Assembly (NCBI GenBank): GCA_963969395.1
Contig: OZ017805.1
Location: 992,001-1,056,000 of the forward strand
Direction of reading: 5' to 3'
Origin: Pseudoscleropodium purum
Taxonomy: Eukaryota > Streptophyta > Bryopsida > Hypnales > Brachytheciaceae
DNA length: 64,000 nucleotides
The position numbers were made by a program, and so were the translations under genes. The notes under the pieces are model-generated. The model saw only the letters and a list, made by a program, of their open reading frames with translations, had not been told where the DNA came from and searched no databases. Positions 6,289 through 42,621 of this stretch are shown one piece after another. Numbering within the stretch: position 1 is the first letter of the stretch; every line of letters starts with the position of its first letter.

Positions 6289-8172
6289 TTCACTTTGTAG
6301 ACACCATGGTTTCTTCTTTCTAACGTCCTACTTACAATGGTGGTAATGCCTCCAACACTTTCTCTACACAATCTATACTTTGCTAAGACATCTATTGTCA
6401 TTCAAAATTTACATTTTGATTCTAGAATTTACAATAGCCTCGTATAAGGAATCCAGAATGTTTTAATGCTCAAAAATATCCAATATTATATTCTACATCT
6501 CCATTGTAATGGATAAAAAAAGACCTAGCTCATGCCTGATATCAAATGCATGCACTATTGTACTACAAGTGTGAACTACTCTTCAATTGACCCAAAGCCT
6601 TGAATATTTCTAGTCCTTAATTGTACCCACTACTACTCATGGACCTTTGGCACTAATCTTTTGCATTTGTTTCGTTCAGGACCTTTCCTCCCAAGCATCC
6701 TATGAATAGTGGCTACCTTCAAGCCGCGCCTCTCTAACATGAGTTTGGCACTAGCACCTTGCAACATTCAACAATCTACATTTGGAAATTGGAGGCAATA
6801 GGTCCTCGGATGTGGTCACCTTTGCTTCATATATGCAAGAATTCCAAGATTGCTTCATTCAGACACCTTCTAATGATGAAGGCTAATGGGGAAGGAAGGA
6901 AGCACTTGGCATATCCCACTTGGGATCTTTAACCTTAGCCATGCTTGAGTGCTTGGACATCTGTCCTTCTCATAAAGATTTCTTTGAGGAATTCTATGGG
7001 AATTAGATAGCAAAGTAGCTTGGCCAATGGATCGCAATGGTGAAGGAGAGCAAGAAAGCAATAGATGTGGTCTCCCACTCGGAGGATTATTGACCACACT
7101 GTCTTCAATAGGCTTGGTAAAAAAATCCATGGTTGAATTTGCTATAACTGCCAAACAAAAGAAATTTCCAGTGTTCAAAATTATAAATTGCCCATAGTCT
7201 AGGATGGAGTTTGCAGATTCCACACAAGTCAATCCACCTTTTGAATCATGGGTCGCTAAGGTGCTCATCATCTAACAAGAAAGACTAGCTAAGAAGAAGA
7301 CCAAAACTCATATGCAAAAATACTAGACTAAACACATATAATGCAAGAACTAATACAAAAAACACTACTTAGCCAAAACCTCAAAAAGATTCTATATATA
7401 TGTAAGTTTGTAAAACAAAGATATGCACTTTAGGTCGGACTAAGTTAAAATGCACAAATCTAAACATATCATTTACGAAACAAATATGTGCACTTTAGGT
7501 TGGACTAAGCTGAAACGCATAAGTTCAAACATATCACATGAAAAATAGATTTTTACACTTTAAAACAAAGTCCGCTAAAATCCACTAGTCAACGGATATC
7601 ACTTTAAAAAATAGATAGGTACAATTTGGGTCAAAGTGAGCTAAAATGCATAGATTGCAAATGGAATTTCACCTTCTCTAAACATCCAAAAACCATTAGC
7701 TAGAGCTTTACCTAACTCAAATTTGGTCTTGAGCAATATGCAAACATTCAAACCAAAGAAACAAAACATCAAGAAGAAACAAGTCTTGCAGACCACTCCT
7801 TGTATAACTCCAAGGATAAAAAAGTATGACATTATGAGGCTTGCTCATTATATGCTTCATGGAACTGTCATCTACAATGATGGTATTGGTAGTCAAGAAG
7901 CTTCTTTAGGAGCCATTGAACAACATGTCTATATTCTTTAGGAACAAGTCCTTGTTTGTCCCAAGCACTTTGAAAGAGTTCAACCTTCCCAATCTATCTC
8001 TTCCTTTCAATGTTTAGCAAGAGTCTTGCCCAAGTATTTGGAAGGATGGCATCATGTCTTAGAAAAGATATTGAGAAATCATTTTAGTGGTGGACTTCTT
8101 CATAGAGTTCCACACTAAAACGATTGCAAATTTTCCAAGCTCTAAGAGGAAATAAGAGCAATTAGGCTACAC
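6289..8172. other. No supported gene; minus-strand 133-codon open frame of doubtful status
   Basis: A minus-strand open frame at 7,271-6,870 has no recognised domain and no second copy in the window. It could be chance or an old gene fragment. The rest is AT-rich DNA with the short tandem array listed separately. Confidence 0.4.
7425..7650. repeat. Degenerate tandem array, about 70-bp unit, about 3-4 copies
   Basis: The phrase cactttaggtcggactaag ... aaaatgcaca recurs at about 7,428, 7,492, 7,556 and 7,626 with growing divergence (cactttaggttggactaag, cactttaaaacaaagtccg, and a last variant with gggtcaaagtgagctaaaat). The core resembles the dispersed ttcaggt-ggtcca-cctgaa palindrome seen elsewhere in the window. 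Confidence 0.6.
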
Positions 8173-10613: not shown

Positions 10614-10617
10614 GTTG
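10614..10617. other. Target-site duplication (gttg), left side of the gypsy element
   Basis: gttg directly precedes the first TG of the left LTR and is repeated at 20,216-20,219 directly after the final CA of the right LTR. Joining the flanks through one gttg restores an open frame in the host sequence. Confidence 0.75.
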
Positions 10618-11083
10618 TGTCGTGTAAAGAAAGATCGATAATCACAATAGATCGAGAGTCTCAACCAAAATCAAACAAACGAAAAGCATAGTCAAATACA
10701 ACTATGCTAAGTATACCCTTGAGGAGTATGTTGCAAATCACAAGAGTAGTCAAGCGGCACGCACTCCACAAAGGGAGAATCAACGAGTGTAAGAAGTATG
10801 AGAGAATGCGGAGCCTTCACTAATGACAAACAATCACTTACAACCAACGGTAATCACTAACACTCTCTAACTCACTCACAAAGCTTGACTTGACAAAGAT
10901 GTCAAGCCAAGCACGTGTGCGCCACTATACACACACACACACAAAACTCTAACGGATTAAACTCCTTCGTAGGATGAATGAGGTGTGCCGGCCACACGTC
11001 ACACACACACGTAGATTAGCAACAACTAACCTACGCTAAAACACTATGATGTGGAGAGGCCCCCAACGCCACCTCTCATGACA
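10618..11083 (-). repeat. 3' LTR of the gypsy element (466 bp)
   Basis: On the plus strand it begins tgtcgtgtaaagaaagatcg and ends cctctcatgaca, giving TG...CA ends. Bases 10,724-11,083 match the right LTR (19,856-20,215) over the same 360-bp length. The first 106 bases (10,618-10,723) are absent from the right LTR but occur a second time at 11,086-11,191, just inside the element. Confidence 0.8.
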
Positions 11084-11085
11084 GC

Positions 11086-11191
11086 TGTCGTGTAAAGAAA
11101 GATCGATAACCACAATAGATCGAGAGTCTCAATCAACATCAAACAAACGAAAAGCATAGTCAAACACAACTATACTAAGTATACCCTTGAG
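11086..11191 (-). repeat. Extra 106-bp copy of the LTR end, inside the 3' LTR
   Basis: This is a direct repeat of 10,618-10,723 at about 95% identity by eye, separated from the LTR by only two bases (gc). It lies between the LTR and the G-rich tract, so the 3' end of the element reads A'-gc-B-A on the coding strand. It may be the remnant of a tandem LTR-LTR junction; see findings. Confidence 0.75.
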
Positions 11192-11203
11192 TGCCCCCCC
11201 TAG
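11192..11203 (-). other. Probable polypurine tract
   Basis: On the element's coding strand this reads ctagggggggca, a G-rich run of the kind that primes plus-strand DNA synthesis just upstream of the 3' LTR. It adjoins the extra 106-bp repeat, not the canonical TG start of the LTR, which is odd. Confidence 0.5.
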
Positions 11204-11547
11204 TGGATAAAGAGCCCCTCTAATTCGCTAGGACCAAACAACACAACATAGACTATCGCCACGGTGATGTCGCTGCAACAACTATACGCATCTAGTCAAA
11301 AGGTAATCCATCGCCGAATCAATAAGCACATGGAGAAGTAACAAAGAGAGGGTAGGCCGGGTGCAATGTGAGCCCCATCTTTAATTGCCTTAGGCAACTT
11401 TGTTGCCAATCCCTTGGTTAATCTTCACGTTGCCTATGTCTGAAACAAAACCAAGAACTCTAACTAGATGGCAACGCACCACACTAGTGAAAGTGCACGA
11501 GAAAGTCAAGCCAGTTCACTATGTGAAACATGGTTAGAAGACCCCCT

Positions 11548-11682
11548 ACAACGAGGGCAAGTTCAATCCCCGAACGGTAGAGTAGAAAGAGGCGGCGTCA
11601 AGCAAGCCATATGTCATCCACGCTGGCAATGATTGCACAATAACATGATAGCAGTGCCCTTCTTCTCACCACACACAAAACA
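11548..11682 (-). pseudogene. PHD finger at the C-terminus of the integrase
   Basis: After the integrase tail the frame reads CFVCGEKKGTAIMLLCNHC, then QRG-stop-HMACLTPPLSTLPFGD, then stop-TCPRC. The ligands fit Cys4-His-Cys3: C-x2-C, C-x2-C with LL before it, H-x2-C, C-x2-C. The CLTPPL and P-x-G-D motifs are the hallmark PHD spacing. The two in-frame TGA codons (11,614 and 11,563) fall where PHD fingers usually have an aromatic residue (Tyr or Trp before the His, and the conserved Trp two residues before the last Cys pair), so TGG-to-TGA is the simplest explanation. PHD fingers usually bind histone H3 tails, methylated or unmodified at K4. Chromoviral integrases carry a chromodomain at this place; here a PHD finger takes that position. 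It may direct integration to certain chromatin. Confidence 0.82.
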
Positions 11683-11685
11683 TGG

Positions 11686-12990
11686 AAGGCCCTCTGGCAC
11701 AACGGCCAACTCAGGATGAACGGAGCCATCAATGGGTAAATGGCAAGGAGCACAATTTTTAGAGTGCTCCCGACACTCCTGGCCATCCATGCCTTCCAAC
11801 AATAAAATACCACTGGGCAACACATTCTTCATGCGAAGAATGGTCCGTCCAGCCTTGATGTCCAACGTCGTGGGTGCCTCACGCTGCAAATAAACGTAAT
11901 CCCCCGTGGAAAAACGTCGCAACTGAGGTCGGTAGGCGCCACTACGAATGCGAGCGTACCGTAGCTTGTCGCAATGCTGAGCAATGGATAAATTCTCCAT
12001 GGCCATCGGCATGGCCCGCTTGAAGAACTCCGCTCGGTCACGCAAACACTGGATCCACACCTCTGGATCATCCAAATCCACAACAGGAGCCAACTTCTCC
12101 CGTACAGAACAGGGTACAATGGGCTCCCGTCTGTATAACAACTGATACGGACTGAAAGCAGCTAGTGAAGCCTGTCGACTAAACCGATACCCCATGGCGA
12201 TCCATGGTATCATCAGATCCCAATCACGGTGGCCACCTTGGAGTAATCCATACTTCCGTAGGCCTTGTTTCACGGTTTGAACCACACGCTCCGCCAAACC
12301 ATTTGCTTCCGGATGATCCCGAGAAGTGGTACGATGGTCAATCAAAGCCTTGGTACACAAAGCTTCAAAAGCCCCAAGGAACTCTCGCCCCTAATCAGTC
12401 AAAACCGCAGCTGGGGCTCCAAAACGAGCCAACACTCGATCGAGGAATGCCATGGCCGCCAACTCTGAAGAGTTCTGTGGAAGAGCCACAAGCTCAATCC
12501 ACTTACTGAAATGCTCCACCATCACCAAGACATACTTGGCTCCATGTGGAGTCACGACAAGTGGACCAGCAAAGTCCAAGGACCAACGATAGCCCAATCC
12601 CATAATGGGCAAAGGTTGCAACTGCGGTGATAAAGTGTTGAAGCTGGATCGTACCCGATCACACACCTCACATCGTGAAATTTAAGTGGCGACCTGCTGA
12701 TACATGCCAGTCCACCAATACTGGCTGCGCAACATCGAATGAGTCTGTCGCACACCTAAATGACCAAGGTCTTCGTGTACTTGCCGTACCAACGAAGCCC
12801 TCTGATCTGGCCTGGGAACTATGCGCCTAGTCCCATCCGGCCACACCCAAAATAGAAGGCCGTTCTCCCAACGAAACCTTGTTATTCGGTGTCCAACTCG
12901 ATCGCGCTCCATAGCCAAAAGTGCGGGTGGAAGCATCCCATGTTGTAGCTTGTGCAAGACTGGAATGTCTTCCCACACATCGCTAACAAC
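11686..12990 (-). pseudogene. INT: Integrase (HHCC zinc domain, DDE core, C-terminal domain)
   Basis: The HHCC zinc-binding domain reads HEDLGHLGVRQTHSML ... then SRCEVCDR, with a TAA at 12,682 just before it. The catalytic core has Asp in WSLDFAGPL (about 12,576), the second Asp at 12,396 followed directly by a TAG at 12,391 where the family has TDQG or TDRG, and Glu in HPEANGLAERV (about 12,291). The spacing is 34 residues, one fewer than the classical D-35-E. The C-terminal domain (RRFSTGDYVYLQRE ... TILRMKNVLPSGILLLEG) has the small beta-rich look of the gypsy integrase C-terminal domain. It would insert the cDNA into the genome. It runs on in frame into the PHD finger. Confidence 0.92.
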
Positions 12991-13099
12991 TTGGGCCTTG
13001 TCTGGTTCCTCATCCGTTGTCAAGTCAACCAACGTCGATGTGGAGCCAAACATCAAGGTGAGATAAGCCGCTGCATGCCACCCCGGAACTGACTCCCTA

Positions 13100-14634
13100 T
13101 CACAATCCCCATGCCACCTAGCACCAGTCACATCCTCTTCTGAAGGACTTGGATTGCGAGAAAGACCATCTGCATCCAAGTTGGTGATGCCGACCCGATG
13201 TACAACCTCAAAATCATACTCTTGAAGCAACAAAGCCCACCTGGCAAGCTTGCCAGTGAGCTTGTTAGACTCCATGAGCCACTTCAAAGGCTGGTGGTCG
13301 GTCACCAACGTAAAATGTTGCCCATACAAATAAGGCCTGAAATGAGCTATGGCCCAAACCGCTGCCAAAGCCTCCCCCTCATAGGATGAATAGTTGGACT
13401 CCGCATTGTTGTTGCTCCTAGAAGCAAAAGCAACAACATACTCCCATCCTTTCTCATCCTTCTGAGTCAATACTGCACCCAATCCCACCGCACTCCAATC
13501 TGTGTACAATTGAAAGGGCCGTGTTGCATCCGGACACTGCAATACAAGAGCTGAACCGAGCTTCAGCTTCAAGGTAGCAAATGCATGCTCCTGCTCGCGC
13601 CCCCAAGTCCATGGTTGATCCTTTCCTGTGAGAATAGTCAACGGTTTAGCAATCAAGCTAAAGTTCTTGACAAATCGGCGATAGTAATTTGCCAAGCCAA
13701 GAAAAGCTCAAAGCTGTGACACGTCGGTTGGGGCAAGAATCTTTTGCAATGCATCCACCTTGGCCTGCTGTACGCCAAGACCCCCTGGAAAAATCATGTG
13801 TCCCAAATATGGCAACTGGTCGTGGAAGAACTTGCACTTGCCATGGTGCAAACGCAATCCCCACTGTCGTAATCTCTCAAATACCTCCTGAAGATGCCTC
13901 ACATGCTCTTGTGGGTTGCTACTAAAAATGATAACATCATCGATATAGCATCGAGCAAACGGTAAACCGGTCAACACCCAGTCCATCACCCTCTGAAACT
14001 CAGCGGGTGCATTCTTAAGGCCAAATGGGAGAAACTTCCAATGGTAGAGTTGATCTCTCCCATCCAGATCAACTCCCCAGAATGCAATCTTCACTCGGTC
14101 ATCCACCATCAATGGTAACTGATGATAACCAGACCGCAAATCTAGAGTACTAAATACTCTAGCATGGCCCACCGCATCAAATAACTCCTCTGGCGTGGGC
14201 ATGGGATACCGGTCTGACTTGGTCTTGCGGTTGACCGGTCTATAATCGCCACACATCTGTTTCTCCGTCCAGTTGCCAAAGATATCCTTCTTCAATGGCA
14301 TAACTATGGCACAAGCATATTCACCTTTAGAGAGCTCAATCAAGCTGGCGGCCAACAACTCCTGACGAGTCTGCATGCCAACTTTCTCTGAAAGACTGAG
14401 CTTGTACGGGCGTCGGAAGATTGGGTGGTCGTCCTCCAACTCAACGTGAATGGGTTTGCCTTTATAGCCCTCCAAATCATGGAGACTAAAGGCAAAACAG
14501 CTGCGATGCGAACGTATGAATGCTCGCACCCTTCGTGCCTCGGCACTGGTAAGATGTGGCCCTAACTCCAAAGGCCAATCATCAAACTCCGTGGTCTCCT
14601 TCTCCACCGTAGAAGACTCACTGCGTACCGGCAC
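13100..14634 (-). pseudogene. RT-RH: Reverse transcriptase and RNase H
   Basis: RT shows CGDYRPVNRKT, the first catalytic Asp in FSTLDLRSGYHQ (residue 165 of the segment starting at 14,634), FLPFGLKNAPAEFQ, and the catalytic YIDD at about 13,947-13,936. A TGA at 13,708 interrupts the family-typical block just before FLGLANYYRRF. RNase H follows, with Asp in LYTDWSAVGLG (about 13,500; the usual TDAS has become TDWS), Glu in YEGEALA, Asp in VTDHQPL and Asp in LDADGLSR. A linker of about 90 codons between the methyltransferase and RT carries the TAGs at 14,884 and 14,647. It would copy element RNA into DNA and remove the RNA strand. Confidence 0.93.
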
Positions 14635-14934
14635 GACCGATGATTGCTACTTAGTAGCAGAGAGGGCATTCATGCCCCCAACCTTCTCACTCACGGGATC
14701 CACATAAAATCCCATATTGTGATGATAAAACCGGAAAAAGATATCCCCAGCATCCTCTCTACCAAAGTCCTCGGCCAAGGCTACAAAGACACGCTGAGCA
14801 TGAAGCTCTTCATCTACGTGCCTCTCCAAACGAAAAAGCAACTCCGCTTCCTTGCTCTCTGTGAGATGTGGCACCGCTGCCCCCTAACCATCAGAGTCTA
14901 CCCCCAGCACGTGTGGCTGGTCACGTGAACAGTG

Positions 14935-15987
14935 CTAAAAGGCGAAACAGAGGCCACAAACCCAAACAAGAGTGTTAAGGTCAATAGCTTGACCCAACAA
15001 ATAATGACGTTGGCCCTCAGAGAGATCCGGTGCCGTAGTGGTGCCTATCAAAAAGCCCATGGCCCGCTCCCTCTCATTGGTAGAAGGCTCCTCGTAAGTT
15101 TGGGAAGTAGAGTCCCAAACCATACCCGGACCGCGTGTCCTAAAGGCAAAAGACCCAGGGTAGCACATCAATGTGGGAAATGCCCCCCATGTGAAACCAA
15201 CGCGGTTCACCACAGCCAAAGGTGGCTCATCATCCTTGGTAACCTCTATGGAAACACGATGGTTGTCCAAGATGTCATCCACCTCACGCCGCACGGGTCG
15301 TTGCACTTGTGCAAGTGCAAAGGTGAGCGTTGCCGATGATGCCAAGTTGGTCCAAATCCAACGTGGCCGATGGGCGTAAGAGCCCAACGCCGCGGCATCA
15401 ACATACAGGGGGGGACCAAGAAGGTGATGGATGTATGCCCCATCCTCACACACCTTCGTCCGTGTATCCCCCAATGGAGGTACATTCTCAAAGATGTACC
15501 CCAGTGGCATCGATTGGTGGGTAATCCACCACTGGATGAGCCTAAGCAAATCCGCAAAGAGCCCCGACCGTGGATCATCCAAGCCACGTCCACTACCTGC
15601 CCGTGAATGGCCTTGGCAAGGCCATCCGGCAATCACCAAGTCCACGTGACCCAATCGGCGAAGATCATCTTCACTAATCATGGTCACATTACGTGGCAAT
15701 TTATCAAAACACCCTTGAATCACAGAAGGTGGTAACTGCTCTGGATACAACGCCAAAAGACGTTGGATGTGATGGTGAGCGGCACGGTTGGCCGCAAAGC
15801 CACTATCCACATGAATGTACCGTCGTACTTTGAGCCCGGCTTCTAACACCGCCGCTAGCCCTCTACCAATGCCGGCAAAGAGCTCCACAAGGGTAATACC
15901 CTCATCTGGTGGACGCCATTGAATAGTGCGAGCCAACAACGGGGTAGAAGAATACTCTGAGTAATGCGAAACATCCAAAGCATCCAC
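14935..15987 (-). CDS. Cytosine-5 DNA methyltransferase domain (DNMT3-like) inside gypsy pol
   Basis: This 350-codon stretch without a stop sits between protease and reverse transcriptase, in frame with both. Motifs occur in canonical order: motif I (SAM binding) LVELFAGIGRG at residues 33-43; motif IV VIAGWPCQGHSRAG with the catalytic Cys at 124; motif VI FENVPP with the ENV Glu at 167; motif VIII AHRPRWIWTN at 205-214; and a C-terminal motif IX/X block ending RERAMGF ... RHYLLGQAIDLN at 307-338. The target-recognition region lies between about 216 and 300. The order is not permuted, unlike plant DRM enzymes, and the AHRPRWIWTN and MGF...LLG blocks most resemble DNMT3. It would transfer methyl groups from SAM to cytosine C5. 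All key residues seem intact. The nearest stops are a TAG at 16,066 and a TAG at 14,935. Target context cannot be read from sequence. Confidence 0.9.
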   Translation of the reverse strand: MDALDVSHYSEYSSTPLLARTIQWRPPDEGITLVELFAGIGRGLAAVLEAGLKVRRYIHVDSGFAANRAAHHHIQRLLALYPEQLPPSVIQGCFDKLPRNVTMISEDDLRRLGHVDLVIAGWPCQGHSRAGSGRGLDDPRSGLFADLLRLIQWWITHQSMPLGYIFENVPPLGDTRTKVCEDGAYIHHLLGPPLYVDAAALGSYAHRPRWIWTNLASSATLTFALAQVQRPVRREVDDILDNHRVSIEVTKDDEPPLAVVNRVGFTWGAFPTLMCYPGSFAFRTRGPGMVWDSTSQTYEEPSTNERERAMGFLIGTTTAPDLSEGQRHYLLGQAIDLNTLVWVCGLCFAF

Positions 15988-16065
15988 AATCTCCCGACTA
16001 CAGCGAGTGAGCTCTAATTGAGTCCCCCAAGGTGGAACCGGATCCTTGCAATGACGTGGAGGGAT

Positions 16066-16860
16066 CTATGGTGGTACGTGCTCCCGTGATTCGGCTACCC
16101 CTGACATAAAAGCATATGTCTCCTCTAGAAGCGTAGAACCATATGGCAAATCGAATGCCAAAGCACTGCACCCAAACATAGCATTCGCCGTAGGAGTCAC
16201 TGTACAAGATGCGAAGACAATGGGGATGAGCTCTTTGCTGCCATTACCGGCACACCACCCAGGCCTAATCCAAGCCTCCTCTGTCCAGTTATCCACCCCA
16301 AAGCCGAGTGGATAAAGTGCCTGCTGACCCACCAAAATGTCGTAGTTGGTGGCACCAGTCACAACGCACTGAAGAGAGACATGTGAAAACAATGGACCAG
16401 ATCCCATGCCAAACATCAACTGTAATGGATGTCGGGTGTACCCTGTGGCCTTCTCCGTTCCCCCAACCGATGTGACAATGGTGAATGGGCAAGGCTCGAG
16501 GTCTAAAGCACCTAGATCCAAATCTTGGGCTAGCTGTTTGCCAATCATCACTAGCTGAGCCCCGGAATCCAACATAACACGTAGGGGGGTAGCTCGAGTG
16601 GGGTTGCCATCCGTACGGCCAACCACCATGACTCCGTCGTCATTCACCAAACGTATCACCCCTGGACGTACACTACGTTGCTCCCGTGCCGACCGGGCTG
16701 CAACATCAAACAAATAAGCCATTCCAAAGACCAAGGACTGATCCTTGGATGACTGCTCCATAGGTATGGAAGTGGCATTGGCCTCAAACGCAGAAATAGC
16801 CTCTGCCGCCAACTTGGCCCGCATTGCCACCAAATCCTCCTTAGTGGATGGAGCCGTCAT
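16066..16860 (-). pseudogene. PR: Retropepsin-like aspartic protease region
   Basis: The 264-codon open segment contains RVMLDSGAQLVMIG, in which DSGA (Asp at about 16,569-16,567) is the catalytic motif of retroviral-type aspartic proteases. The downstream hydrophobic strand pattern and NYDILVGQQALYPLGFG match the usual protease C-terminal half. The segment upstream (17,385-16,864), with Ala/Ser/Pro-rich linkers, joins it to Gag. It would cleave the polyprotein, including, presumably, the methyltransferase from its neighbours. It is closed by a TAG at 16,066, after which the same frame continues into the methyltransferase through PPRHCKDPVPPWGTQLELTR. Confidence 0.88.
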
Positions 16861-17439
16861 TGCCTATGACACCTCCAACGACGGAATGGGCACCTTGCCT
16901 TCCAACATACTACCCGCCAAGTGGAATACACCGGATGGTTGAAAATCCGGTGTGAGAAAGTCCACGCCAGCAAACACCGGCAACTGCAACACCTTATACG
17001 CCAAGGTGTGTGCAGCATCTCCACGATTAGAAGAAACCGGTGGGACCGGATTCGATGTGGGAGCGGTAGTAGAAGAAGCCGCATCTGCGATGCTGAACGA
17101 AAGAGGTAGCCCGGACTGACCAATGTGGTCCGGCAAACCCAAATGGCGTGAACGATTACTACTACCCGGCACAATGGAAGAGGGTGCCACTGCCTATGCA
17201 ATGGTTTGAGCACGAGTGGCAACCGCTGCCACCACCTCCCCTGAAGCACCATACAAGTAGTGATCTAGGGCTAAAGATGAGCCCTGACCCCTCACCACAG
17301 GCCGTGTGTCTGCCACTTGCCCCAAAGAAGCCATCGCACTCATCTGCTTTTTTAGCTCCGCCAATTCGGCTTGAAGTGATTTCACAGCCTCTGATCCGCC
17401 ACCTAAAGATGTCGGGCGCTTCTCAGGATGAAGAATGAA

Positions 17440-18645
17440 TCAATTCTCATCATTGTGGCCGATCTTGCCACAATGAGAGCATGTCACAAGCTTCTTCCCC
17501 TTGCCCCCAGTCTTCTCCGCAGATTTGTCCGCCTCGGTCTTGGGCTTGGTCTTTCCCGCCCTTGTCCCCTTCTTTTTAGGACAATTGGGGTCCCCTTTGG
17601 TGTGACCGGCCTCTCCACAAGCCCAACAATACACAACCTTTTCAGGTTGTGCCTTCGCCAAACTACCTGTAGCTGTAGCAAGCTTCTTGGGCTTGAGAGC
17701 CTCTAAAAGCGACATGACCAAGTCTGTGGCCTCGCTCACGCCTAATGCCCGGTCAAGCACTTCCACCTCAGCAAACGCCTGAGCCAAGGTCGCGTTGCCG
17801 CCGTATTGGAAAAGGAGGTGCGGGCTAATCAATTCAACCATCCGCTTGTCTAGCTTGGAGATAAAAATCTTCACAAGCTGACGTTCCGTGAACACATCAC
17901 CAGCCTCCGTTGCCAACCGTGACAATCAAGTATATATAGTGCGTGGGGTATCTTCCTTCTCACAGCGGAAATCCTGGATGCGACGCATCTAATCACGCCG
18001 AAAACCCCCATACTCCATCTCCAAATGCGCCATAAAATGCACCAGAGGATTGAAGCGAGGCGGAGGACCGACTGCCTCCAATGCCGCCCGTGTGGCTTGA
18101 GCCAAACGTGACATGGCCCCCAAGCCGGAACCCTCCTCATCCTTAGGCGGATCGCCAAAAGAAGGAGCTCGGGCAACCGCAGCCTCCTTAAGTGCAATCA
18201 CCAACTCCACACGATCGAGCCAATAGTCCTCAACTGGGCGCAATTCCTCTGCGTGCAATGCAATCCACCTCTCGTATGTCTAAAGCACCTCCAGCTCCAA
18301 ATGCTGTGGCAACAACTCAAACGCGTACCAGTCGTTGAACGACGGTGTCCGCTGGCGCTTCTCCTTCATCCATGTTTGGAATCGGAGTTGCCAATCGGGC
18401 AAAGAGATACCCCCAGCCCGTCCCAAGAACCTGTCTTGCACAACATGACGAAAATCATCCTCCATGTCGCCAAACGTGCCCACACTCCAAACTCGAAGCC
18501 TACGATCGGTATCCAACGCCGAAATAGGCTCAAAAGCCTGGTCGGTATCCGACCCTGGCCCAAAGTCTACGGTGGAAACACTTTCCGGGTGGTCTGGTGA
18601 GGGGGAGCGATAATACCGACTCCTGGTACTCACCATAGACAACAA
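17440..18645 (-). pseudogene. gag: Gag region with two zinc-knuckle-like motifs
   Basis: The region begins MVSTRSRYYRSP, followed by an acidic linker, then a helical capsid-like stretch (RWIALHAEELRPVEDYWLDR, FNPLVHFMAHLEMEYGGFRR, RLATEAGDVFTERQLVKIF) typical of retrotransposon Gag. Two nucleic-acid-binding motifs follow: CWACGEAGHTKGDPNC (about 17,628-17,581), a C-x2-C-x4-H-x6-C variant of the CCHC knuckle, and CSHCGKIGH (about 17,481), whose fourth ligand position is now at or near the TGA at 17,440. Between them is a Lys-rich linker. Stops at 18,280, 17,989, 17,926 and 17,440 break this part. Gag would form the virus-like particle and package the element RNA. Confidence 0.85.
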
Positions 18646-19855
18646 CCACCAAGGAAACTATCTACGGGTACTATCTAAAAGGTAAGGGTACGGACGGGCA
18701 ACCTGCACTTGCAAAATCACCAAGCTATGTGGATCACCGGTCATCACCTTCGGCTACCACAGGTCCAACCACAACCCCCCACATAAAAAGGTCTTGTTGG
18801 CCATTAACCCGACTTCACCCCTACAGTACCCTATCACAATCTGAGACAACAAGAAATGGGGCCACCGGAAAACACCGGCAACAAGCCCGCAATACGGGGG
18901 AGGTACCGCATAAGAATCCAGAAATCAAAACCGGATCCTCTCCCCCAACAACATAAAAGCAGAATTGACAAAAGAATTAGAGCCACTAGCACGCACCTGT
19001 AGTGGATAATCCCAAGTTGCAATATCTGCAAAGCAAAAGAAACACCAAAGATGTTCCCCAAATGTCTAAAACTAAGGAGGAGATGGAATCCTACAGTCGC
19101 GGTGTTCACAAACACTAATCCCCCATTACTTAGCAAAACAATGGGTGATAACGCGATAAAATGTCAATCCAACACTAGAATTGGATAAATGACGAGATAC
19201 TCAAACTATGGGCACAAATTTCACTCACAAGCGAGTAAAATTGCCCTCACAAACGACCTCCAAAGTTTGACACTAAACTTTTTTTTTTTTTTTTCCGAAC
19301 CACTTACAGTGTGAACACGGCTAAAATGAAACCGGTTCATAAAATAACTCGAACCACTTACAGTGTGAACACGGATAAAATGAAATCGGTTTAGTAAATA
19401 ACTCGAACCACTTACAGTGTGAACACGGATAAAATGAAATCGGTTTAGTAAATAACTCGAACCACTTACAGTGTGAACACGGATAAAATGAAACCGGTTC
19501 AGTAAATAACTCGAACCACTTATAGTGTGAACACGGATAGAATGAAACCGGTTCAGAAAATAACTCGAACCACTTACAGTGTGAACGCGCTATCGGATGG
19601 ATGAAAAATCGCCGCGGATGAGACTGCGGGAACTCCAGGAACTCCAGAAACTCCAGAAACTCCAGAACTTCTTGCTCCACAACTTCGAATCTTCACAACT
19701 TCTCCAAAAATCGTCCGATTTGAGCGCCGTCGGTGGCGTTGGCTTTGTCTCCGCGCGCTCTATAACAAAATCTAAACTACCCACAATTTTTTTTGAATCA
19801 CTCAATATCAAATTTGAGAACTATTGCAAGAAACGTGGGAGGGTCTTTGTCAAGT
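18646..19855 (-). other. 5' leader of the gypsy element
   Basis: About 1.2 kb between the 5' LTR and Gag. It holds the 54-bp tandem array, a 17-T run (19,278-19,294 on the plus strand, A-run on the coding strand) and many stops in the gag frame, so it is presumably untranslated. No convincing primer-binding site (TGG-type tRNA 3' complement) follows the end of the 360-bp LTR at 19,855. Confidence 0.6.
19296..19588. repeat. 54-bp tandem repeat, about 5.4 copies, in the gypsy leader
   Basis: Units start at 19,296, 19,350, 19,404, 19,458, 19,512 and 19,566, exactly 54 bases apart, each beginning cgaaccacttacagtgtgaa. Units differ by only a few substitutions (for example accggttc versus atcggttt). 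The length is a multiple of three, and the minus strand is open through most of the array as an 18-residue repeat containing HCKWFELF, but this probably reflects the repeat rather than coding use. Confidence 0.92.
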
Positions 19856-20215
19856 GAGTATGTTGCAAATCACAAGAGTAGTCAAGCGGCACGCACTCCA
19901 CAAAGGGAGAATCAACGAGTGTAAGAAGTATGAGAGAATGCGGAGCCTTCACTAATGACAAACAATCACTTACAAGCAACGGTAATCACTAACACTCTCT
20001 AACTCACTCACAAAGCTTGACTTGACAAAGATGTCAAGCCAAGCACGTGTGCGCCACTATACACACACACACACAAAACTCTAACGGATTAAACTCCTCC
20101 GTAGGATGAATGAGGTGTGCCGACCGCACGTCGCACACACACGTAGATTAGCAACAACTAACCTACACTAAAACACTATGATGTGGAGAGGCCCCCGACG
20201 CCACCTCCCGTGACA
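19856..20215 (-). repeat. 5' LTR of the gypsy element (360 bp, lacks the terminal 106 bp)
   Basis: It matches 10,724-11,083 end to end and finishes in cctcccgtgaca before the target duplication gttg. On the coding strand it starts TGTCACGGGAGGTGG and should contain the promoter. A run of cacacacacacacac and the string acaaagcttgacttgac are shared with the 3' LTR. Missing the 106-bp segment found at the corresponding end of the 3' LTR means its U5 end, and probably the primer-binding site, have been lost or replaced. Confidence 0.85.
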
Positions 20216-22707
20216 GTTGAATGCTCTATAACTAGTACTCCTAGAATCATTTGAAAGTCAATTACTCCCAAATTTATGAGGCTAGTTGTGTGTGGTCTCC
20301 AAACATCTTCCGGCCATAATATGTGCTTGTTTTCACCAATGCTATAGGCACGCATATAAGCCACTGTTGATGGTATTCAAAATTGGTTTTTATTCTCCAA
20401 GAAGACTTTAAAGAAGGTTGCAGTTTTTGGATTGATGGTGACCATTGTTTTGTATTTTTCCCTTCATTGCTTGCCTATAGAAAAGTAGGCTTCACTCGAC
20501 CTCTCCGTAAGCAAGTTCATTGTTGTGCTTGTAAAACAATGACTTTTCTTTAATGCTCTCTAGTTCTTGATGATGAGTTCATTCCTCGCATTGAAGAGGC
20601 CAAGTTCAAGATCAATGAGGTGGAGTTCTTTCTTAACCATCTTCTTTTGCTTGACCCTCTCTACCCAATCCTTCGAGTTGTAGTAGTCTTCTATGACTCC
20701 AACGACTGGCTTGATAGTCACTTTTGGATAGATATGTTTGCATTTTGGGCTAGACCAATTCAAAGTGTGTTTGACCATCATCTTCATATCATCACAGGTT
20801 AAGTTCCCAAGAGGCCTAAAGAAGTCTTGGTTGAGAGCGCACCTTTCCTACTTCTAGTTTTTTTTCTCATTAAACTTCATTTTGGTTTCAAAATCAATCA
20901 GCTTTCCATATGCAACATTAACAATTACTTTGCTCCACACTTTGTAAACATCATTGAGTGTAGAAATAACCTTTAGCTCATTGATAAGTTTCAACTTCTC
21001 ATCTCCACCTTTCTTCTTTGAGAGTATGTAATTTTTGTACATATTAATCATAGCAAACCTTTGATAAATTATCTTCTCAAATTTTTGCAATGCAATCAAC
21101 CAAAATGTTATAGTCTATAATACATGAACAAGATCTATTCAAAATGAACTCAATCAGCTAATTCATACAAATGATTCTAAACACGTGCAATTCTAGTTGG
21201 TCCGATCTGAATTACTCACCCTAAACTTTTGTATCACACTAGCCGATTCTTGGTTTCATGGCAACAAACTACTAGTGCCATATCCTTTTGGATGCTTTGG
21301 TTTGCCTGTAGCTATCCATTATAGTCCTTGTGTCCAAAATGTTTGTCACCCATGATGGCTAAACAATCTGAAAATGGTTTGTGTGGTTGTAGTAGGTGGA
21401 AATAGCCCTCAGTATCATCGAGTTTCGTAACCAAACTACAAAGTAGTTCCAAATCTTAAAGTGTTCCTTGACTTACTTGCTTACACCACTTCCTCCCTCC
21501 ATCATCAACCTACTTGTAGCTACATTGTATTAGCCATTGATGATGTAAAAAAACCAATCCTTTACTTCATCCCAATTGATAGGTGAATTCTTGTTGCCAT
21601 GTGCCATGTTGGACATGACGGAGAGAGTCTACTTTGTACTCTTGTTTGGCATATTGACAAGGTAGTGCATCATCTTCTGAACAATTATGTCTTCCTTGAT
21701 ACAAGTGTTGAGCTTCGCAAGTGCATCCATCAAATTTTCAATGAGGAGCTCCTTCTTCTCATTTAGCCCGAAAATGTAAGCATTCAAGTATGTCTCCCAA
21801 AAGTTCTTGTACATGGCGCTTATGACTTTATAGTCAAGTTTTCAATTTGTCTTGAGTGCTTCAAAGATAGCATTCATTTCTTTGAGATAACTCAACGACT
21901 CTAGACCTGACTAGTCTAGTGCTCTTTTAGTGGGCTTCTTGGTTGACACTAATACTAGCAAACTACTTCGAGCTACTAATGTTGGAGTTTGGGGCGACTT
22001 CTTGTTTCTCATGCTCCGACTTTGCGACTCGATTGTTTTACACCTTATAGACAACTACTCTTCACTTTGACTACTCTGCTCCATAGATATAGTGCGAGCA
22101 ACCAAGAATGATTTTTGCATCTTATGTTTCTCCTTGAAGACTTCAAAAGAGTTCATGAGAACTGTCAATTTTATACAAAGTTGCTTTCCAGTTAAAGGGG
22201 ATCCGTCCTGATTGTAGTATTCCCCTTCATCCACTTTCTTCTCTACCTGCTTCAATTCTACATTGTATGGAGTGGGTTCTAAACTTGCTAGAAATAGCGA
22301 AATGTTAAAGTGAATTTTCTCTCTATTCACAAGAAGAATAAAGTGATATTGTTGGTCTACTACAAGTTCATTCTTTTTCGTCACCAAGTGTACTTTAATA
22401 GATGGATAGACGTCATTAGTTATTCTCTTCATCCTTTCGTCAAAGGAAATTGGGAGGTATGCGTTTGTTTTTTTGTACTTCATGTTGAAGTGCATGTTGT
22501 CCATGTGTAGCACCATTTTTAGACACCACATTTCAACCTCCTTGGGGTTGGTAAACTTCCAATAGTTCCTTCAATCATCATTTTGTTCCCAATGACATCT
22601 TCAAATTCAAGATTGTCAATTTTTGTGAAGTGAACTTTGAGCAAATTAATGAACTCTTCCATTCTAGAAAGGGACAAACATTTTGTGAGATGGGTGATGC
22701 GATTCAA
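20216..22707 (-). pseudogene. 5' part of the coding sequence interrupted by the gypsy element
   Basis: Minus-strand protein-like segments occur at 22,707-22,519, 22,531-22,055 (158 codons, with YLPISFDERMKRITNDVYP and EYYNQDGSPLTGKQLCIKL), 21,814-21,629, 21,099-20,854, 20,787-20,560 (TIKPVVGVIEDYYNSKDWV) and 20,364-20,220 (ILWPEDVWRPHTTSLINLG, then LGVLVIEHST at the insertion point). The frame at the last segment continues in the left flank (PFFYEVLMPQQKMK) once the gypsy element and one duplication copy are removed. Frame changes and stops between segments could be introns, decay, or both. No family is recognised. The change of frames argues for an old pseudogene. Confidence 0.5.
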
Positions 22708-22879
22708 GATAGACTGACTTGAAATTCATTTTTAGATGACTTTGTTTAGTTAAATGAATGAATGGCACTAGTCATTTATTATAGTTACATTTTTGTGTTT
22801 CTAAAATACATGATTAGGATGAGATTATGTTTCATTACATGATGTTATTTGACATATGCAATTCAGTTCTCACCGATTT

Positions 22880-23460
22880 GTTTTGCATTTGCGTTCTACT
22901 TTAGGCAGGTGTGTATTTCAAGTTGCTCTACCCTAAATTGCATATTTGTCCATTGACAAACATCATTTGCTTTAGAGTGAATGGATATCATACCTATAAT
23001 ATTGATCAACAAATTTGTATATTTACCTCTACTAGAAGTGCAATTTAGGTTAGTCCACCCTAAATTACATATTTGTGTATTGTGAAATATTATTTTCTTT
23101 AAGGGTTCATAGGTCTTTTACCTATGAATAAATCAAAAGGTTTGTATATTTACTTCTAATAGGTGTGCAATTCATGATGGTCCGCCTTAATTGCATGTTC
23201 TTGGATCATCAATTGTTATTTTCTTTAGGTTGAATAGCAATCACAAGTACAATAAAATCAGTAAGTTTGTATATTTTCTTCTACTAGGTGTACAATTCAA
23301 GGCAATCCATCCTAAACTGCATATTTGTGTACTATCAATTGTCATTTTCTTTAGGGTGAATAGGAAGCACAATTAGAATAGAACTTGCAAGTTTATCTAT
23401 TTTCTTTTGGTAGGAGTGTAATTCAAAGTGGTTTGCCTTGAATTGCATATGGTTCACAAA
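22880..23460. repeat. Diverged tandem array, about 120-130-bp unit, about 4-5 copies
   Basis: A repeated order of phrases is visible: agg(t/a)gtgcaattcaggttggtc, ccctaaattgcatatttgtg, attttctttagggtgaatag, then aagtttgtatattttcttct. Copies begin near 22,905, 23,035, 23,162, 23,287 and 23,412. Each unit carries the dispersed imperfect palindrome discussed in findings. Confidence 0.7.
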
Positions 23461-39071: not shown

Positions 39072-42000
39072 TATGGGAGCACGAAAACTCAAATTAGATA
39101 AGTTAGTTTAGAATTTAGATTAGATAGACTTGCAAATTTCAATTTTTTTGATACCTTCTAGAGATTTACGCTACACTATGACTATAATAGAAATAGTTAG
39201 TTTTCGGGTTGCTAAAACCTTTAGTAACATTACGGAATCAAGTTCGATATGGATCCAGAATCTAGAAAAGTACCAGATTCCCCAAACCTACGTTCTAGAC
39301 ATTTGGTCTAAAAAATGAGGAGACCGTTAGGGGAACGGTCATCTACCTGTTCTCCATCAGGAACTATCGATCGCACACTAAGTACTTAAACCCACCGCCA
39401 CTCTTCTTTTTCTCCCTCTCTGCTAGTTAAACTTGATGAATGTATAGTTGAGGGAAAGAGTGGTGAGTGAGCGATCAAGATAGGATGAGACAAAAGGAGT
39501 AATACTGGATTAGGTTTGCAAATTGTCGGTGATTCATGGCGGCAGCTGCCGATTCGGCTACATGAAGGTCTGGAATTATAACCCGATTGGTTTGTCCGGT
39601 TATCCCTTCCGATGCGGGTCACCGAGCACAGTTAGAGGAGGATCTCATGTGTATCGGATGTGTCGCGTTGTTAGATAGGCCGTGGAGCAAGAAGAATAAG
39701 GAGATGATTCAAAAACTCATTTATGGAGTTCCAATTCAGTACGAGTTGATAGTGAGAGGTTGACTCGTAGCTTGGATGGAAGACATTTGGGCGGATTTAG
39801 AGTTTAGGAAGAATGGGCTTGGACTAGCCGAAAGAGCAAACAAGTACGTGACCGGAAAGTTCCGGAGTCAAGCCCACTCAAAGGAGGGATTTGCCATTAA
39901 CGATTGTAAAAATGAAAAGCATAGACGAGTATTGAATTTCCTTATTCCAATTCTATATTTGGAAAAGCCTACCTACGTTACAATCACGGTGGCGAACACT
40001 ATTTTCGAGGCCTTCAAGGATCGGATTATCTATTGGGGAAGAGTGATTCAGAGAATTGTGGACAAGTTGGCAAAGCACGTAGGCCGAGCAAAGCACAGCC
40101 CTATCACGCCATATCTGTTCCACTTCTATCACTACAAGGAGGTTTTGAGTGCCAGGGAGATGATTGAGTACAATACTAGAGTCAAGATTCTAAAATACGG
40201 CTTAACAAAAGAGTTGGAGAAGGGGGAGAATAAATCCGAAGAAGAGCAACTAGAAGAGGAAGAAGAAGTAGTGGACCGGAAACGAAGGAAGTCCACAAAT
40301 TCGACGGCAAGGAGGAAGGCGTCAACATCGAAATAGGAGGAATCGATACCCGATCCAGAACCTCCCTAAGAGCTCGAATTCTTTGAAGCCGGAATTTAGT
40401 GGATGTAGCAGGCTAAATAGATGTACGGCGACTTGGAGGATCACATCCTTCTTATCGCAAACGAACTCAAGGTAGAGCCGGAGTAAATTTTGGAGGAAAT
40501 CTGGAAACGCCCGAATTTAGAGGAGTTTTGACAAAAGGAGGAACAAATCTAGAAGCTAGACGAGGAAAGGGATAACTTCAAGTCTCAACTTGAGTGGACA
40601 GAAAGGGAGCTGAATGCGGTGAGACGGAAAGAAACAGAGGCTCTTCGGCTCGTCCATGACCTCAAGGAACTCGTCATGGTTTCGGAACATATGGTGATTC
40701 AAACTGGGCTCTATACCGCCTGGTTGGCGAAGGAAGGGCATTTGACCGGATCTAGGATGGTGAAGATCCTGGTCAAGTTCGAAGCCTGGATGGGGATTAT
40801 GTTGAAAGACATGCAAAAGTTGTTGGGGTACTTGGATCCGGAACGGGCCATTGATTTAGAAGGGTTTCTGGAAATTTCAAGGAGCATATTCTGGGATACT
40901 TTGATTTGACAGACTCGATCTAGTAGGCTTCAAGTAGTTCGATCCAGCCCCAATTGGAGGGACTAAAGTCTATCCTCACTCTAGTTGTAGGACCTTCATG
41001 TAGCTAAGTACAGAGTCCATCAGGACCAACAAGACTTGAGTTGGAGAAAGGGACGAGTGGAAAGCTTGTTTCAGTAGAACAAGCACTTTTCGTTTTGATT
41101 TTCCCACCACTTGGGAATGTCATGACTGGAAAGTTAAGAGTACCTGAATTGACGGTCCACGGCAATCTTGACGTACGGATTGGAGTGATGACGAATTTGG
41201 CTTGATCTCATCCAGAAGACTTCTCTCATATGCAATAGTTGACTCCAAAACGGGATCATGCTGAGATTGCATTGAGTGAATTGCCGCAAGCCAAAGACTC
41301 GGAGATTGAGGAGTCAAAAGAAGAGGTTCTGAAGTCTGATTTGACGAAGAGACAAAATCGGAAGACTCGCCTCCCAAGGTTTCATGGAAGCCCCAAACTT
41401 GGTCATCAACGAAGAATACGCTAGTGAAGGTTTCAATGAAGACTATGGGTAGTCAAAGTGGGAGCAGCTCGAAGAAGGCACGGTGAGGTAGATAGAGCAT
41501 AGGTAGTTAGGTAGGATTTTTATCCGAAACGGGAATTCCAAGCGTGGATTTGGGATCCGGATTGTTTTGGAGATTCTGGACTTGTAAGGGTAGTTGGACT
41601 GTAAACATTCCAAATATCCCGGGTTGTTCACTGGTTGGTTGCCTTGATTTCTAGGATGCCTTTTTGGCTTTTTAAATGTTGACTTTGGTTTTGGTTTTTG
41701 GTTCTTAAAGGTGGGCAAGTTTATTGCTTTCTCATTCCATCCTAGCAGTTATTTTGTTGTATTTCATTCCCTTTTTTAAATTGAGTCACTTGGTGAATCT
41801 TCTAGTTTCAACCGTATCTTCGAATTGTGTTGGTTTGTTGTTTGAGTGTTGAGATGTGAGAAGGACAGGTGAGGAGGAATCCGAATTTTGGATAACTTGA
41901 TCGGATTGAGGGTGTACTATTGTAATGATGTTAGATACGAGACGAGGGAGCTGCGCATGGTGCCTTTGAACTACCGGAATGATAATCCAGTTTCTAGTGA

Positions 42001-42621
42001 AGAGTGGTGTGAGTGTAGATCCAAAATTGGAAACAATTCTATATGGAGATTAGCGACCGTTAGAAGAAACTCCCACTTAGCAAAAGGTGTGCCAACCTTA
42101 GGATCTATCTTACACCTAGAAAAATTACCCCCTTGTCGGTTCCAAGCATCTAAGATCTGTCGTTGTAGTAAAGAGGAGTGAACGTAGTTTTGAGTGACCT
42201 GCATTCCAGATCGGCCATCTAGGATGTTGTGAGGATCCGGATCTATCATGTGCACTACAACATCTTGAGTACTTGGGTGTTTGTTGTTTGTTTTTATCTG
42301 TGTAGTGAATAGACAAGAGTGGTGAAGTCCCTACCCCTTGAAAGATCAATAGCGAACCCTTTGATGGTAAAATCGAGGAATTGAAAACTAATTTGTTAAG
42401 GAACAAAACTGGAAAAACTGGGTGATACCGGAACCGGATTGGAATCCGGATAGTAGTGATTTTGGAAAAGAGAATGGAAGAGAGTAGTCGGAAGAAGAAG
42501 AAACGATCATTCGGATATTAGAGTTTGGAAAGGCATCTAGAATTCCTTGGGATGATAATTCGTGTCATCTTACTATGTTGTCGTGTGTAAAGATATTTAC
42601 GTCTAAACTACGTTTGCGACA
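39072..42621 (+). mobile_element. 3.5-kb TG...CA element, copy 1 (plus strand)
   Basis: The left end reads tatgggagcacgaaaactc (TGTGGGAGCACG in other copies) and the right end ...cgtttgcgaca. Both ends match copies 2 and 3. Inside, in order: about 310 bp of promoter-like sequence with tacttaaaccc in the TATA position, a gag-like coding region (39,536-41,491), about 1.1 kb of non-gag sequence, and a conserved terminal block containing gtcatcttac. I compared the first and last few hundred bases of this copy and of copy 2 by eye and found no long terminal repeat. The flanks (aatgc and ctagt) do not show a target duplication for this copy. Confidence 0.75.
39536..41491 (+). pseudogene. Gag-like coding region of copy 1
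   Basis: It starts at the ATG in gattcatggcggcagc. The longest open part (39,776-40,336) includes DIWADLEFRKNGLGLAERAN, PTYVTITVANTIFEAFKDRI and PITPYLFHFYHYKEVLS, ending in an acidic then basic tract (EEEEEVVDRKRRKS). A second helical part (40,560-40,909) includes FKSQLEWTERELNAVRRKE and HDLKELVMVSEHMVIQT and is probably coiled coil. The same order occurs in all five copies. Position as the only coding region after a promoter, plus helical and charged character, suggests a Gag or nucleic-acid-binding protein, but no known domain or zinc knuckle is visible. Many stops are TAG at positions where another copy has CAA or CAG. Confidence 0.6.

What the first reader, a model, noticed from the sequence alone, without database searches (positions are those of the whole stretch)
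14935..15987. DNMT3-like cytosine-5 DNA methyltransferase inserted between protease and reverse transcriptase of a Ty3/gypsy polyprotein
Seen: motifs I (FAGIGRG), IV (GWPCQ), VI (FENV), VIII (HRPRW) and a C-terminal MGF...LLG block in canonical order in an uninterrupted 350-codon stretch, in frame with protease upstream and RT downstream. Known: from memory, retrotransposon-borne cytosine methyltransferases have been reported in streptophyte algae and dinoflagellates; ordinary plant gypsy elements lack one. Inference: the element may methylate its own cDNA or its host, either to hide from expression-based silencing or to pace its own activity. All catalytic motifs survive although the rest of the polyprotein has stops, but a 350-codon stop-free stretch may be chance.
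Basis: partly seen in the sequence, partly recalled or inferred. Interest (0 to 1): 0.93.

Follow-up and report, generated by a model that had tools for sequence, protein, structure and literature searches.

The report
Retrotransposon carrying a DNA methyltransferase gene
This stretch of a plant-like genome is one decayed copy of a jumping element that carries its own DNA-methylating enzyme, and the layout of its ends suggests it inserts by cutting open a DNA circle rather than by joining a linear molecule, which would be unusual for this class of element.

Summary
A DNMT3-like methyltransferase sits between protease and RT of a 9.6-kb Ty3/Gypsy element (20215-10618). It is no private chimera: the window's 313-Mb genome gives 113 matching stretches; carriers occur in Marchantia, Calypogeia, Klebsormidium and Closterium. 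The capture is known from K. nitens (PMC5890265). New here: (1) one RT clade holds all 30 informative carriers; (2) the enzyme ends ORF1 before a conserved leaky-stop motif (TAG CAA YYA); (3) the ends are DIRS-like split repeats (A-int-B-A-B), yet with a DDE integrase and perfect 4-bp target duplications in 14 of 17 copies (control 0 of 272); (4) a self-complementary primer site follows A1 and a purine tract precedes B1, so the reverse-transcription LTR would be B-A and the integrated form equals a 2-LTR circle cut at an internal palindrome (ACAGCTGT). Three of 14 LTR-LTR junctions carry extra primer-site-like bases. The enzyme most likely methylates the element's own cDNA; that is inference. 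This copy is dead: 14 premature stops and CG/CHG-biased C-to-T decay.

The parts
10618..20215 (-). whole element, 9598 bp, TG...CA ends
   Evidence: repeats and ends
20216..20219 (.). target-site duplication CAAC, 5' side
   Evidence: read; rule tested on other copies
10614..10617 (.). target-site duplication CAAC, 3' side
   Evidence: read
19856..20215 (-). repeat A1 (360 bp)
   Evidence: 97.5% to A2
20020..20031 (-). inferred self-primer sequence in A1 (TCTTTGTCAAGT)
   Evidence: perfect 12-nt complement of the site after A1
19844..19855 (-). inferred primer-binding site ACTTGACAAAGA directly after A1
19242..19643 (-). 54-bp tandem repeat in the leader
14647..18636 (-). ORF1 frame gag-PR-MTase ending at the conserved TAG; 9 private premature stops
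17554..17631 (-). zinc knuckle of gag
   Evidence: Pfam zf-CCHC_6 E 5e-5
16444..16590 (-). aspartic protease
   Evidence: Pfam Asp_protease_2 E 1e-4, just under the curated cut-off in this copy; over it in relatives P0112 and P0116
14938..16065 (-). DNMT3-like cytosine-5 methyltransferase (Pfam match 15454-15891)
14647..14649 (-). conserved TAG followed by CAATCA (inferred readthrough stop)
11506..14646 (-). ORF2 frame RT-RNaseH-IN-PHD with its terminal TGA; 5 private premature stops
13792..14256 (-). reverse transcriptase
   Evidence: RVT_1 E 1.3e-30
13216..13530 (-). RNase H
   Evidence: RT_RNaseH E 5e-39
11900..12810 (-). integrase: H2C2 zinc site and DDE core (broken by stops here; bounds approximate)
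   Evidence: H2C2 E 4e-11 in window; rve E 1e-13 in L001
11545..11685 (-). PHD finger at the integrase C-terminus (bounds approximate)
   Evidence: PHD E 4e-10 in L001; window place by alignment
11192..11203 (-). purine tract CTAGGGGGGGCA directly before B1
11086..11191 (-). repeat B1 (106 bp)
   Evidence: 95% to B2
11081..11088 (.). B1|A2 palindromic junction ACA-GC-TGT (GC at 11085-11084), inferred integrase cut site
   Evidence: same place in other copies
10724..11083 (-). repeat A2
10618..10723 (-). repeat B2

Best explanation
It is a Ty3/Gypsy-type retrotransposon of an old plant lineage that captured a DNMT3-type gene. Its RNA self-primes at the site after A1 (inferred). Reverse transcription gives a linear copy with LTR = B-A (inferred from primer site and purine tract). 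The cDNA ends are joined into circles (inferred from junctions). The DDE integrase cuts a circle at the internal palindrome CA/GC/TG (inferred) and inserts it with a 4-bp target duplication (shown), which leaves A-int-B-A-B (shown). Gag-PR-MTase is made in bulk and RT-IN by readthrough of a UAG (sequence shown, translation inferred). So the MTase enters the particle with Gag and most likely methylates the element's own cDNA or circle before insertion (inferred).
For: MTase identity. Selection: MTase 0.093, RT 0.112; 8 copies 0.061-0.093. RT clade of 103 rows, SH-aLRT 98: 30 of 30 informative rows in it carry MTase, 5 of 5 informative rows outside lack it. Split repeats: A without B at the 5' side of 19 of 20 copies, none found in the 20th; 26 B-A-B 3' ends. 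Target duplication perfect in 14 of 17, control 0 of 272. Self-complement of 12, 13, 13 and 20 nt in the window, L001 and two divergent subfamilies. A2|B2 exact in 10 of 14; in 3 of 14 extra bases that begin like the primer site. Palindrome also in subfamily 2. TAG CAA TCA in 20 of 21 loci, CCA and TTA versions in the other subfamilies. L001 assembles as a closed A-int-B circle. HIV-1 integrase cuts its palindromic 2-LTR junction after CA in vitro (PMC1905944, abstract and one results section read).
Against: No methylation, translation or circle was measured. The closed contig L001 may be an assembly collapse. [quoted passage not shown] Copies of the forms A-int-B and A-B can also arise by recombination between repeats after insertion. 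One of the three primer-like junction inserts is only 3 nt, and the 243-nt one is otherwise rearranged. In K. nitens the isolated domain showed no activity in yeast, which the authors call inconclusive. The stop is not general: P0176, P0191, P0203, P0207 and P0212 run from MTase into RT, and one of six subfamily-2 copies has TAA. Three of 17 copies have 3 of 4 matching target bases only; 4 of 19 copies start TA instead of TG and 1 of 17 ends TA instead of CA.
Confidence: 0.66

Rival explanations
1. The split repeats arise as in DIRS/PAT elements: copying at the circle junction is templated, and a tyrosine recombinase supplied by another element opens and inserts the circle.
For: A1-[ORFs]-B1A2B2 is the arrangement described for Ngaro (PMC8547959, passages); de Mendoza et al. 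note DIRS-like repeats for KnitGypsy-Dnmt3.
Against: L001's ORFs match rve integrase and show no tyrosine recombinase at E 1e-3; 4-bp duplications (read by eye) and TG...CA ends point to DDE strand transfer; extra bases at A2|B2 fit end joining better than templating.
Confidence: 0.12
2. The MTase acts mainly on host chromatin: with the PHD finger it marks or selects insertion sites, or provokes early silencing that keeps the element harmless.
For: PHD finger on the integrase. The window copy was methylated at some time: C in L001 is T in the window at CG 142 of 844, CHG 116 of 710, CHH 182 of 2348; reverse direction 57 of 662, 42 of 553, 159 of 2488.
Against: Host enzymes also methylate plant elements in these contexts (established knowledge), so the decay does not name the enzyme; the MTase lies on the Gag side, which would go into particles.
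Confidence: 0.2
3. The MTase is passenger DNA without a function for the element.
For: Many copies hold stops; 28 within-genome pairs give dN/dS 0.26-1.09; in those 8 copies GWPCQ is intact in 7 and an ELF-GI motif was found in 6.
Against: 0.061-0.093 against L001, like RT; kept by all 30 informative members of the clade; catalytic motifs nearly invariant among 27 relatives down to 38% identity.
Confidence: 0.03
4. A private chimera of this copy, or chance motifs in a stop-free stretch.
Against: 113 matching stretches in the same genome; profile E 1e-22.
Confidence: 0

Closest known systems
KnitGypsy-Dnmt3 of Klebsormidium nitens (de Mendoza et al. 2018, PMC5890265)
   Same: DNMT3 domain in a Gypsy polyprotein, between protease and RT in the K. 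nitens protein P0212; DIRS-like repeats, intronless, purifying selection; same RT clade.
   Different: Here a UAG with readthrough context parts MTase from RT; P0212 runs through. Target duplication, self-primer, palindrome and PHD are not in the parts of that paper that I read (terms 'target site' and 'PHD' found 0 times in its main text). The host here is unnamed.
SymbioDIRS-Dnmt3 of dinoflagellates (same paper)
   Same: DNMT3 in pol; A-coding-B-A-B repeats.
   Different: Tyrosine recombinase instead of DDE integrase; the authors describe the two acquisitions as independent.
DIRS/PAT/Ngaro elements
   Same: Split direct repeats; DIRS-class elements with Dam-like adenine methyltransferases are cited in PMC5890265.
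   Different: DDE integrase, target duplication and TG...CA ends here.
Tf1-type self-primed LTR retrotransposons (mechanism recalled; seen here only as titles and abstracts)
   Same: Sequence next to the LTR is complementary to a stretch inside it.
   Different: Split repeats and inferred circle opening; RNA 5' end not mapped here.

Membership tests
DNMT3 cytosine-5 methyltransferases | best profile and fold match to DNMT3 over other C5 enzymes | tested here: met
   DNMT3A E 1.4e-22; entries named only DNA methyltransferase (4onj, recalled as a plant DRM) 1.7e-12; DRM2 1e-9; HaeIII 2.5e-7. All 50 listed Foldseek rows are DNMT3 entries
DNMT3 cytosine-5 methyltransferases | PCN in motif IV | tested here: not met
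   family has GWPCQG, DNMT3A GSPCND; hence DNMT3-like, divergent
DNMT3 cytosine-5 methyltransferases | place in a tree with host DNMT3, DRM, CMT, MET1 | tested here: inconclusive
   only joined DNMT3A fragments and three bacterial-type rows as references; long branches
KnitGypsy-Dnmt3 lineage | RT clade shared with K. nitens MTase elements | tested here: met
   P0212 lies in the 103-row clade, SH-aLRT 98, quick search with long-branch warnings
KnitGypsy-Dnmt3 lineage | split repeats A-coding-B-A-B | tested here: met
KnitGypsy-Dnmt3 lineage | purifying selection on the MTase | tested here: met
Ty3/Gypsy LTR retrotransposons | PR-RT-RH-IN order with DDE integrase | tested here: met
Ty3/Gypsy LTR retrotransposons | identical LTRs flush with both ends | tested here: not met
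   5' side A only, 3' side B-A-B
Ty3/Gypsy LTR retrotransposons | short target duplication next to TG...CA | tested here: met
   14 of 17, control 0 of 272; TG in 15 of 19, CA in 16 of 17
DIRS order | tyrosine recombinase | tested here: not met
   rve found, no phage-integrase match in L001's ORFs
DIRS order | no target duplication (recalled) | tested here: not met
Self-primed (Tf1-like) elements | site next to the repeat complementary to a stretch of that repeat | tested here: met
   12, 13, 13, 20 nt
Self-primed (Tf1-like) elements | that stretch is the RNA 5' end | not testable with these tools
   no RNA data
UAG-CAR-YYA readthrough (motif recalled) | conserved TAG CAR YYA between two in-frame ORFs | tested here: met
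   20 of 21 loci and L001; subfamily 2 TAG CAA CCA in 5 of 6, TAA in 1; subfamily 3 TAG CAA TTA in 1 of 1

The most novel reading that the evidence does not exclude
A whole lineage of plant Gypsy elements normally integrates from end-joined DNA circles: its DDE integrase opens the circle at an internal palindrome instead of using LTR ends. DNA methyltransferases recur in split-repeat retrotransposons (this lineage, SymbioDIRS with DNMT3, DIRS with Dam) because their circular cDNA must be methylated to survive or to be cut at one site only.
Probability: 0.45. Interest if true: 0.88.

Novelty: new variant of a known kind. Interest (0 to 1): 0.74.

Why it matters
DNMT capture by a Gypsy element was known from one alga. 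Here it looks like an old, kept part of a lineage that also reaches liverworts and the window's unnamed plant-like host, with copies numerous and intact enough at their ends to read the integration route. That makes two questions testable: can a retroviral-type integrase use a DNA circle as its normal substrate, and what does a retroelement gain by methylating its own cDNA.

Tried and rejected
Chance or chimera: rejected. Ordinary LTR ends: rejected, no B beside A at any of the 19 detected 5' sides. Tyrosine-recombinase element: no match in L001's ORFs. tRNA-type primer site: none seen by eye next to A1; not searched further. Viral-contig scans: the MTase found nothing; A1 gave 28 loci at 28-52% identity, set aside as probable phage dcm genes without further test; ORF2 gave no relative. 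Genome contigs gave 1 relative, L001. Rfam and tRNA scans of the window: nothing. Literature: ten searches; among papers I opened, only PMC5890265 describes such elements. PMC12344493 (passages) mentions DNMT3 in retrotransposons citing it, but calls the LTR ones Copia. PMC6317226 and PMC8616336 (passages) gave nothing on them. Rows dropped: RT tree, hits with under 330 matched residues (drawn from the best 120 of 2905 hits plus earlier hits); 75 of 110 rows do not tell MTase state. MTase tree, rows under 260 residues, and P0095-P0111 except P0095 and P0110. Target-duplication count, 3 of 20 copies without a 3' end in the fetched stretch.

Full report
Observation. The methyltransferase is on the minus strand, in a 376-codon open frame 16065-14938. 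It matches Pfam DNA_methylase (E 7.4e-12). A profile of 27 relatives finds DNMT3A at E 1.4e-22, DRM2 at 1e-9 (entry 4onj, recalled as a plant DRM, at 1.7e-12) and bacterial enzymes from 2.5e-7. An AlphaFold model (mean pLDDT 82, but under 50 around motif IV) matches DNMT3 structures in all 50 listed rows. Motif IV is PCQ where DNMT3A has PCN, so I call it DNMT3-like.

The element. It runs 20215 to 10618. Reading 5' to 3': repeat A1, primer site, leader with 54-bp tandem repeats, gag with zinc knuckle, protease, MTase, TAG, RT, RNase H, integrase, PHD finger, purine tract, B1, A2, B2. A relative, L001, lies in a contig binned as a cyanobacterium (a eukaryotic contaminant, I infer). It is 86% alike over 7.4 kb; its ORF1 has 1346 and its ORF2 1047 codons, with one TAG between them in the same frame. 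Against L001 the window copy has 14 premature stops: 7 CAG to TAG, 2 CGA to TGA, 2 TGG to TGA, 1 CAA to TAG (two changes), 1 TGT to TGA and 1 TAT to TAA. So 11 of 14 are single C-to-T or G-to-A changes. C-to-T differences are about twice as frequent as the reverse at CG and CHG and little raised at CHH, the mark of once-methylated DNA.

Leaky stop. TAG CAA TCA follows the MTase part in 20 of 21 loci of the family, the window's own among them (in L090 the pattern was not found), and in L001. In a subfamily with 49-51% MTase identity it is TAG CAA CCA in 5 of 6 copies and TAA CAA CCA in one; in one copy of a third subfamily (55%) it is TAG CAA TTA. All but the TAA fit UAG-CAR-YYA, a readthrough context that I recall from plant viruses. 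The second codon after the stop means Ser, Pro or Leu, so the base pattern rather than the amino acid is kept. Other relatives have no stop there (P0176, P0191, P0203, P0207, P0212).

Copies. The window's genome (G000, 313 Mb, 52 contigs) gives 113 matching stretches; some are pieces of one copy, and only 109 of 184 candidates were scored. I fetched both sides of 20 copies. A without B lies at the 5' side in 19 of 20; the 3' side shows B-A-B in 14, a single B in 3, nothing in 3. A DNA search (40 of 140 candidates scored) lists 41 matches: 26 B-A-B, 5 A-B, 8 lone A, 1 B-A and 1 short piece; for two of the three copies without a 3' end a B-A-B lies just beyond the fetched stretch. The 5' end starts TG in 15 of 19 and TA in 4; the 3' end is CA in 16 of 17. 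A perfect 4-bp target duplication flanks 14 of 17 copies with both ends, the other three match 3 of 4; in 272 mismatched pairings 0 agree. All three single-B copies have it. Of five A-B solos four have it, the fifth 3 of 4.

Two further subfamilies have the same plan with different sequence. Subfamily 2: one copy ends in B1-A2-B2 with ACAGCTGT at B1|A2 (its A1 was not found in the fetched stretch); another is A-int-B with the duplication AGGG, read by eye; the self-complement is 20 nt. Subfamily 3, one copy: A1/A2 and B1/B2 at 88%, self-complement 13 nt, duplication TATT read by eye; its 5' end starts CG and its B1|A2 junction reads ACA-AG-TGT.

Reading the mechanism. The site after A1 (ACTTGACAAAGA) is perfectly complementary to a stretch in A1: 12 nt in the window, 13 in L001; 1 of 20000 shuffles of A1 does as well. 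It is identical in 15 of 19 copies. A purine tract precedes B1. By the usual rules of reverse transcription (established knowledge) the LTR is then B-A, and linear cDNA would be BA-int-BA. The integrated form A-int-BA-B is what a 2-LTR circle gives when opened at one internal B|A junction. At that junction all 14 copies read CA-NN-TG, with NN = GC, GT, AC or AT; these two bases are absent at the outer ends, as after 3' processing. The LTR-LTR junction A2|B2 is exact in 10 of 14, lacks 3 bases in one, and carries 3, 8 or 243 extra bases in three; these begin ACT, ACGTGACC (its own primer site reads ACTTGACC) and ACTTGACAAAGAC. That is how end-joined cDNA would look; the 3-nt case is weak and the 243-nt case is otherwise rearranged. 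A circle with one LTR would give A-int-B, which exists, though B1 x B2 recombination gives it too. HIV-1 integrase cuts its palindromic LTR-LTR junction symmetrically after CA in vitro, and the same paper says foamy-virus integrase cuts its own six-base one (PMC1905944). So the step is chemically plausible; in this element it is inferred.

History. In an RT tree of 110 rows (quick search, long-branch warnings, one distant outgroup row) a clade of 103 (SH-aLRT 98) holds all 30 informative MTase carriers; the 5 informative rows without MTase fall outside. 75 rows do not tell, and only the best 120 of 2905 hits were at hand, so losses inside the clade cannot be excluded. Three rows have MTase after RNase H; the MTase tree groups four such rows (support 91). 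Source labels name Marchantia, Calypogeia, Klebsormidium and Closterium for MTase carriers; the label Tetstr1, which I read as Tetraselmis, has partial MTase matches (P0254, P0272); Riccia is seen by RT-integrase similarity alone (P0226). One relative of ORF2, P0168, bears a transcript-assembly label.

Selection. Window against L001: MTase core 0.093 (bootstrap 0.055-0.149), RT 0.112 (0.064-0.173); seven other copies 0.061-0.088. 28 pairs inside the genome run 0.26-1.09, as copies drift after insertion.

Function. Sequence puts the MTase in the Gag-PR product. Inference: it is packaged with cDNA and methylates it. The 2018 paper showed de novo CG methylation in yeast by SymbioDIRS domains and an inconclusive result for the K. 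nitens one. What methylation buys is open: protection, masking, or control of which palindrome is cut.

Known and new. Gene capture, purifying selection and DIRS-like repeats were published for K. nitens. In ten searches of the held library, and in the parts of papers that I opened, I found no report of the target duplications, self-primer, palindrome, leaky stop or PHD finger for these elements, nor of this family in liverworts; the library misses most subscription papers.

Noticed in passing
window 53970-54521 (-): ORF with Pfam DUF4218 (E 1e-20), which I recall from plant CACTA-type transposons; supports a plant-like host.
   Followed up: partly
window 39074-42609 and 48661-52215: A 3.5-kb inverted pair, 85% alike, with related pieces at 59-64 kb; probably another repeat family. 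One ORF in it (39764-40336) has no Pfam match.
   Followed up: partly
L001 1-9285: Retrotransposon assembled as a closed circle (exact 127-bp end overlap) in a record named as a cyanobacterium; also P0004 labelled as an Obscuribacterales protein. Likely eukaryotic contamination of MAGs.
   Followed up: partly
proteins P0216, P0227, P0231, P0257: Relatives with the MTase between RNase H and integrase instead of before RT.
   Followed up: partly
proteins P0271, P0273, P0274, P0280, P0281: Gypsy proteins outside the clade with the PHD finger between RT and integrase; none shows an MTase match, but only P0271, P0280 and P0281 have an N-terminus long enough to tell.
   Followed up: no
G000: Eleven large contigs (C1, C40-C49) seem to make up nearly all 313 Mb; my guess is a moss with 11 chromosomes, not shown.
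   Followed up: no
window 22878-23436 and 7413-7607: Degenerate tandem repeats of about 126 and 65 bp.
   Followed up: no
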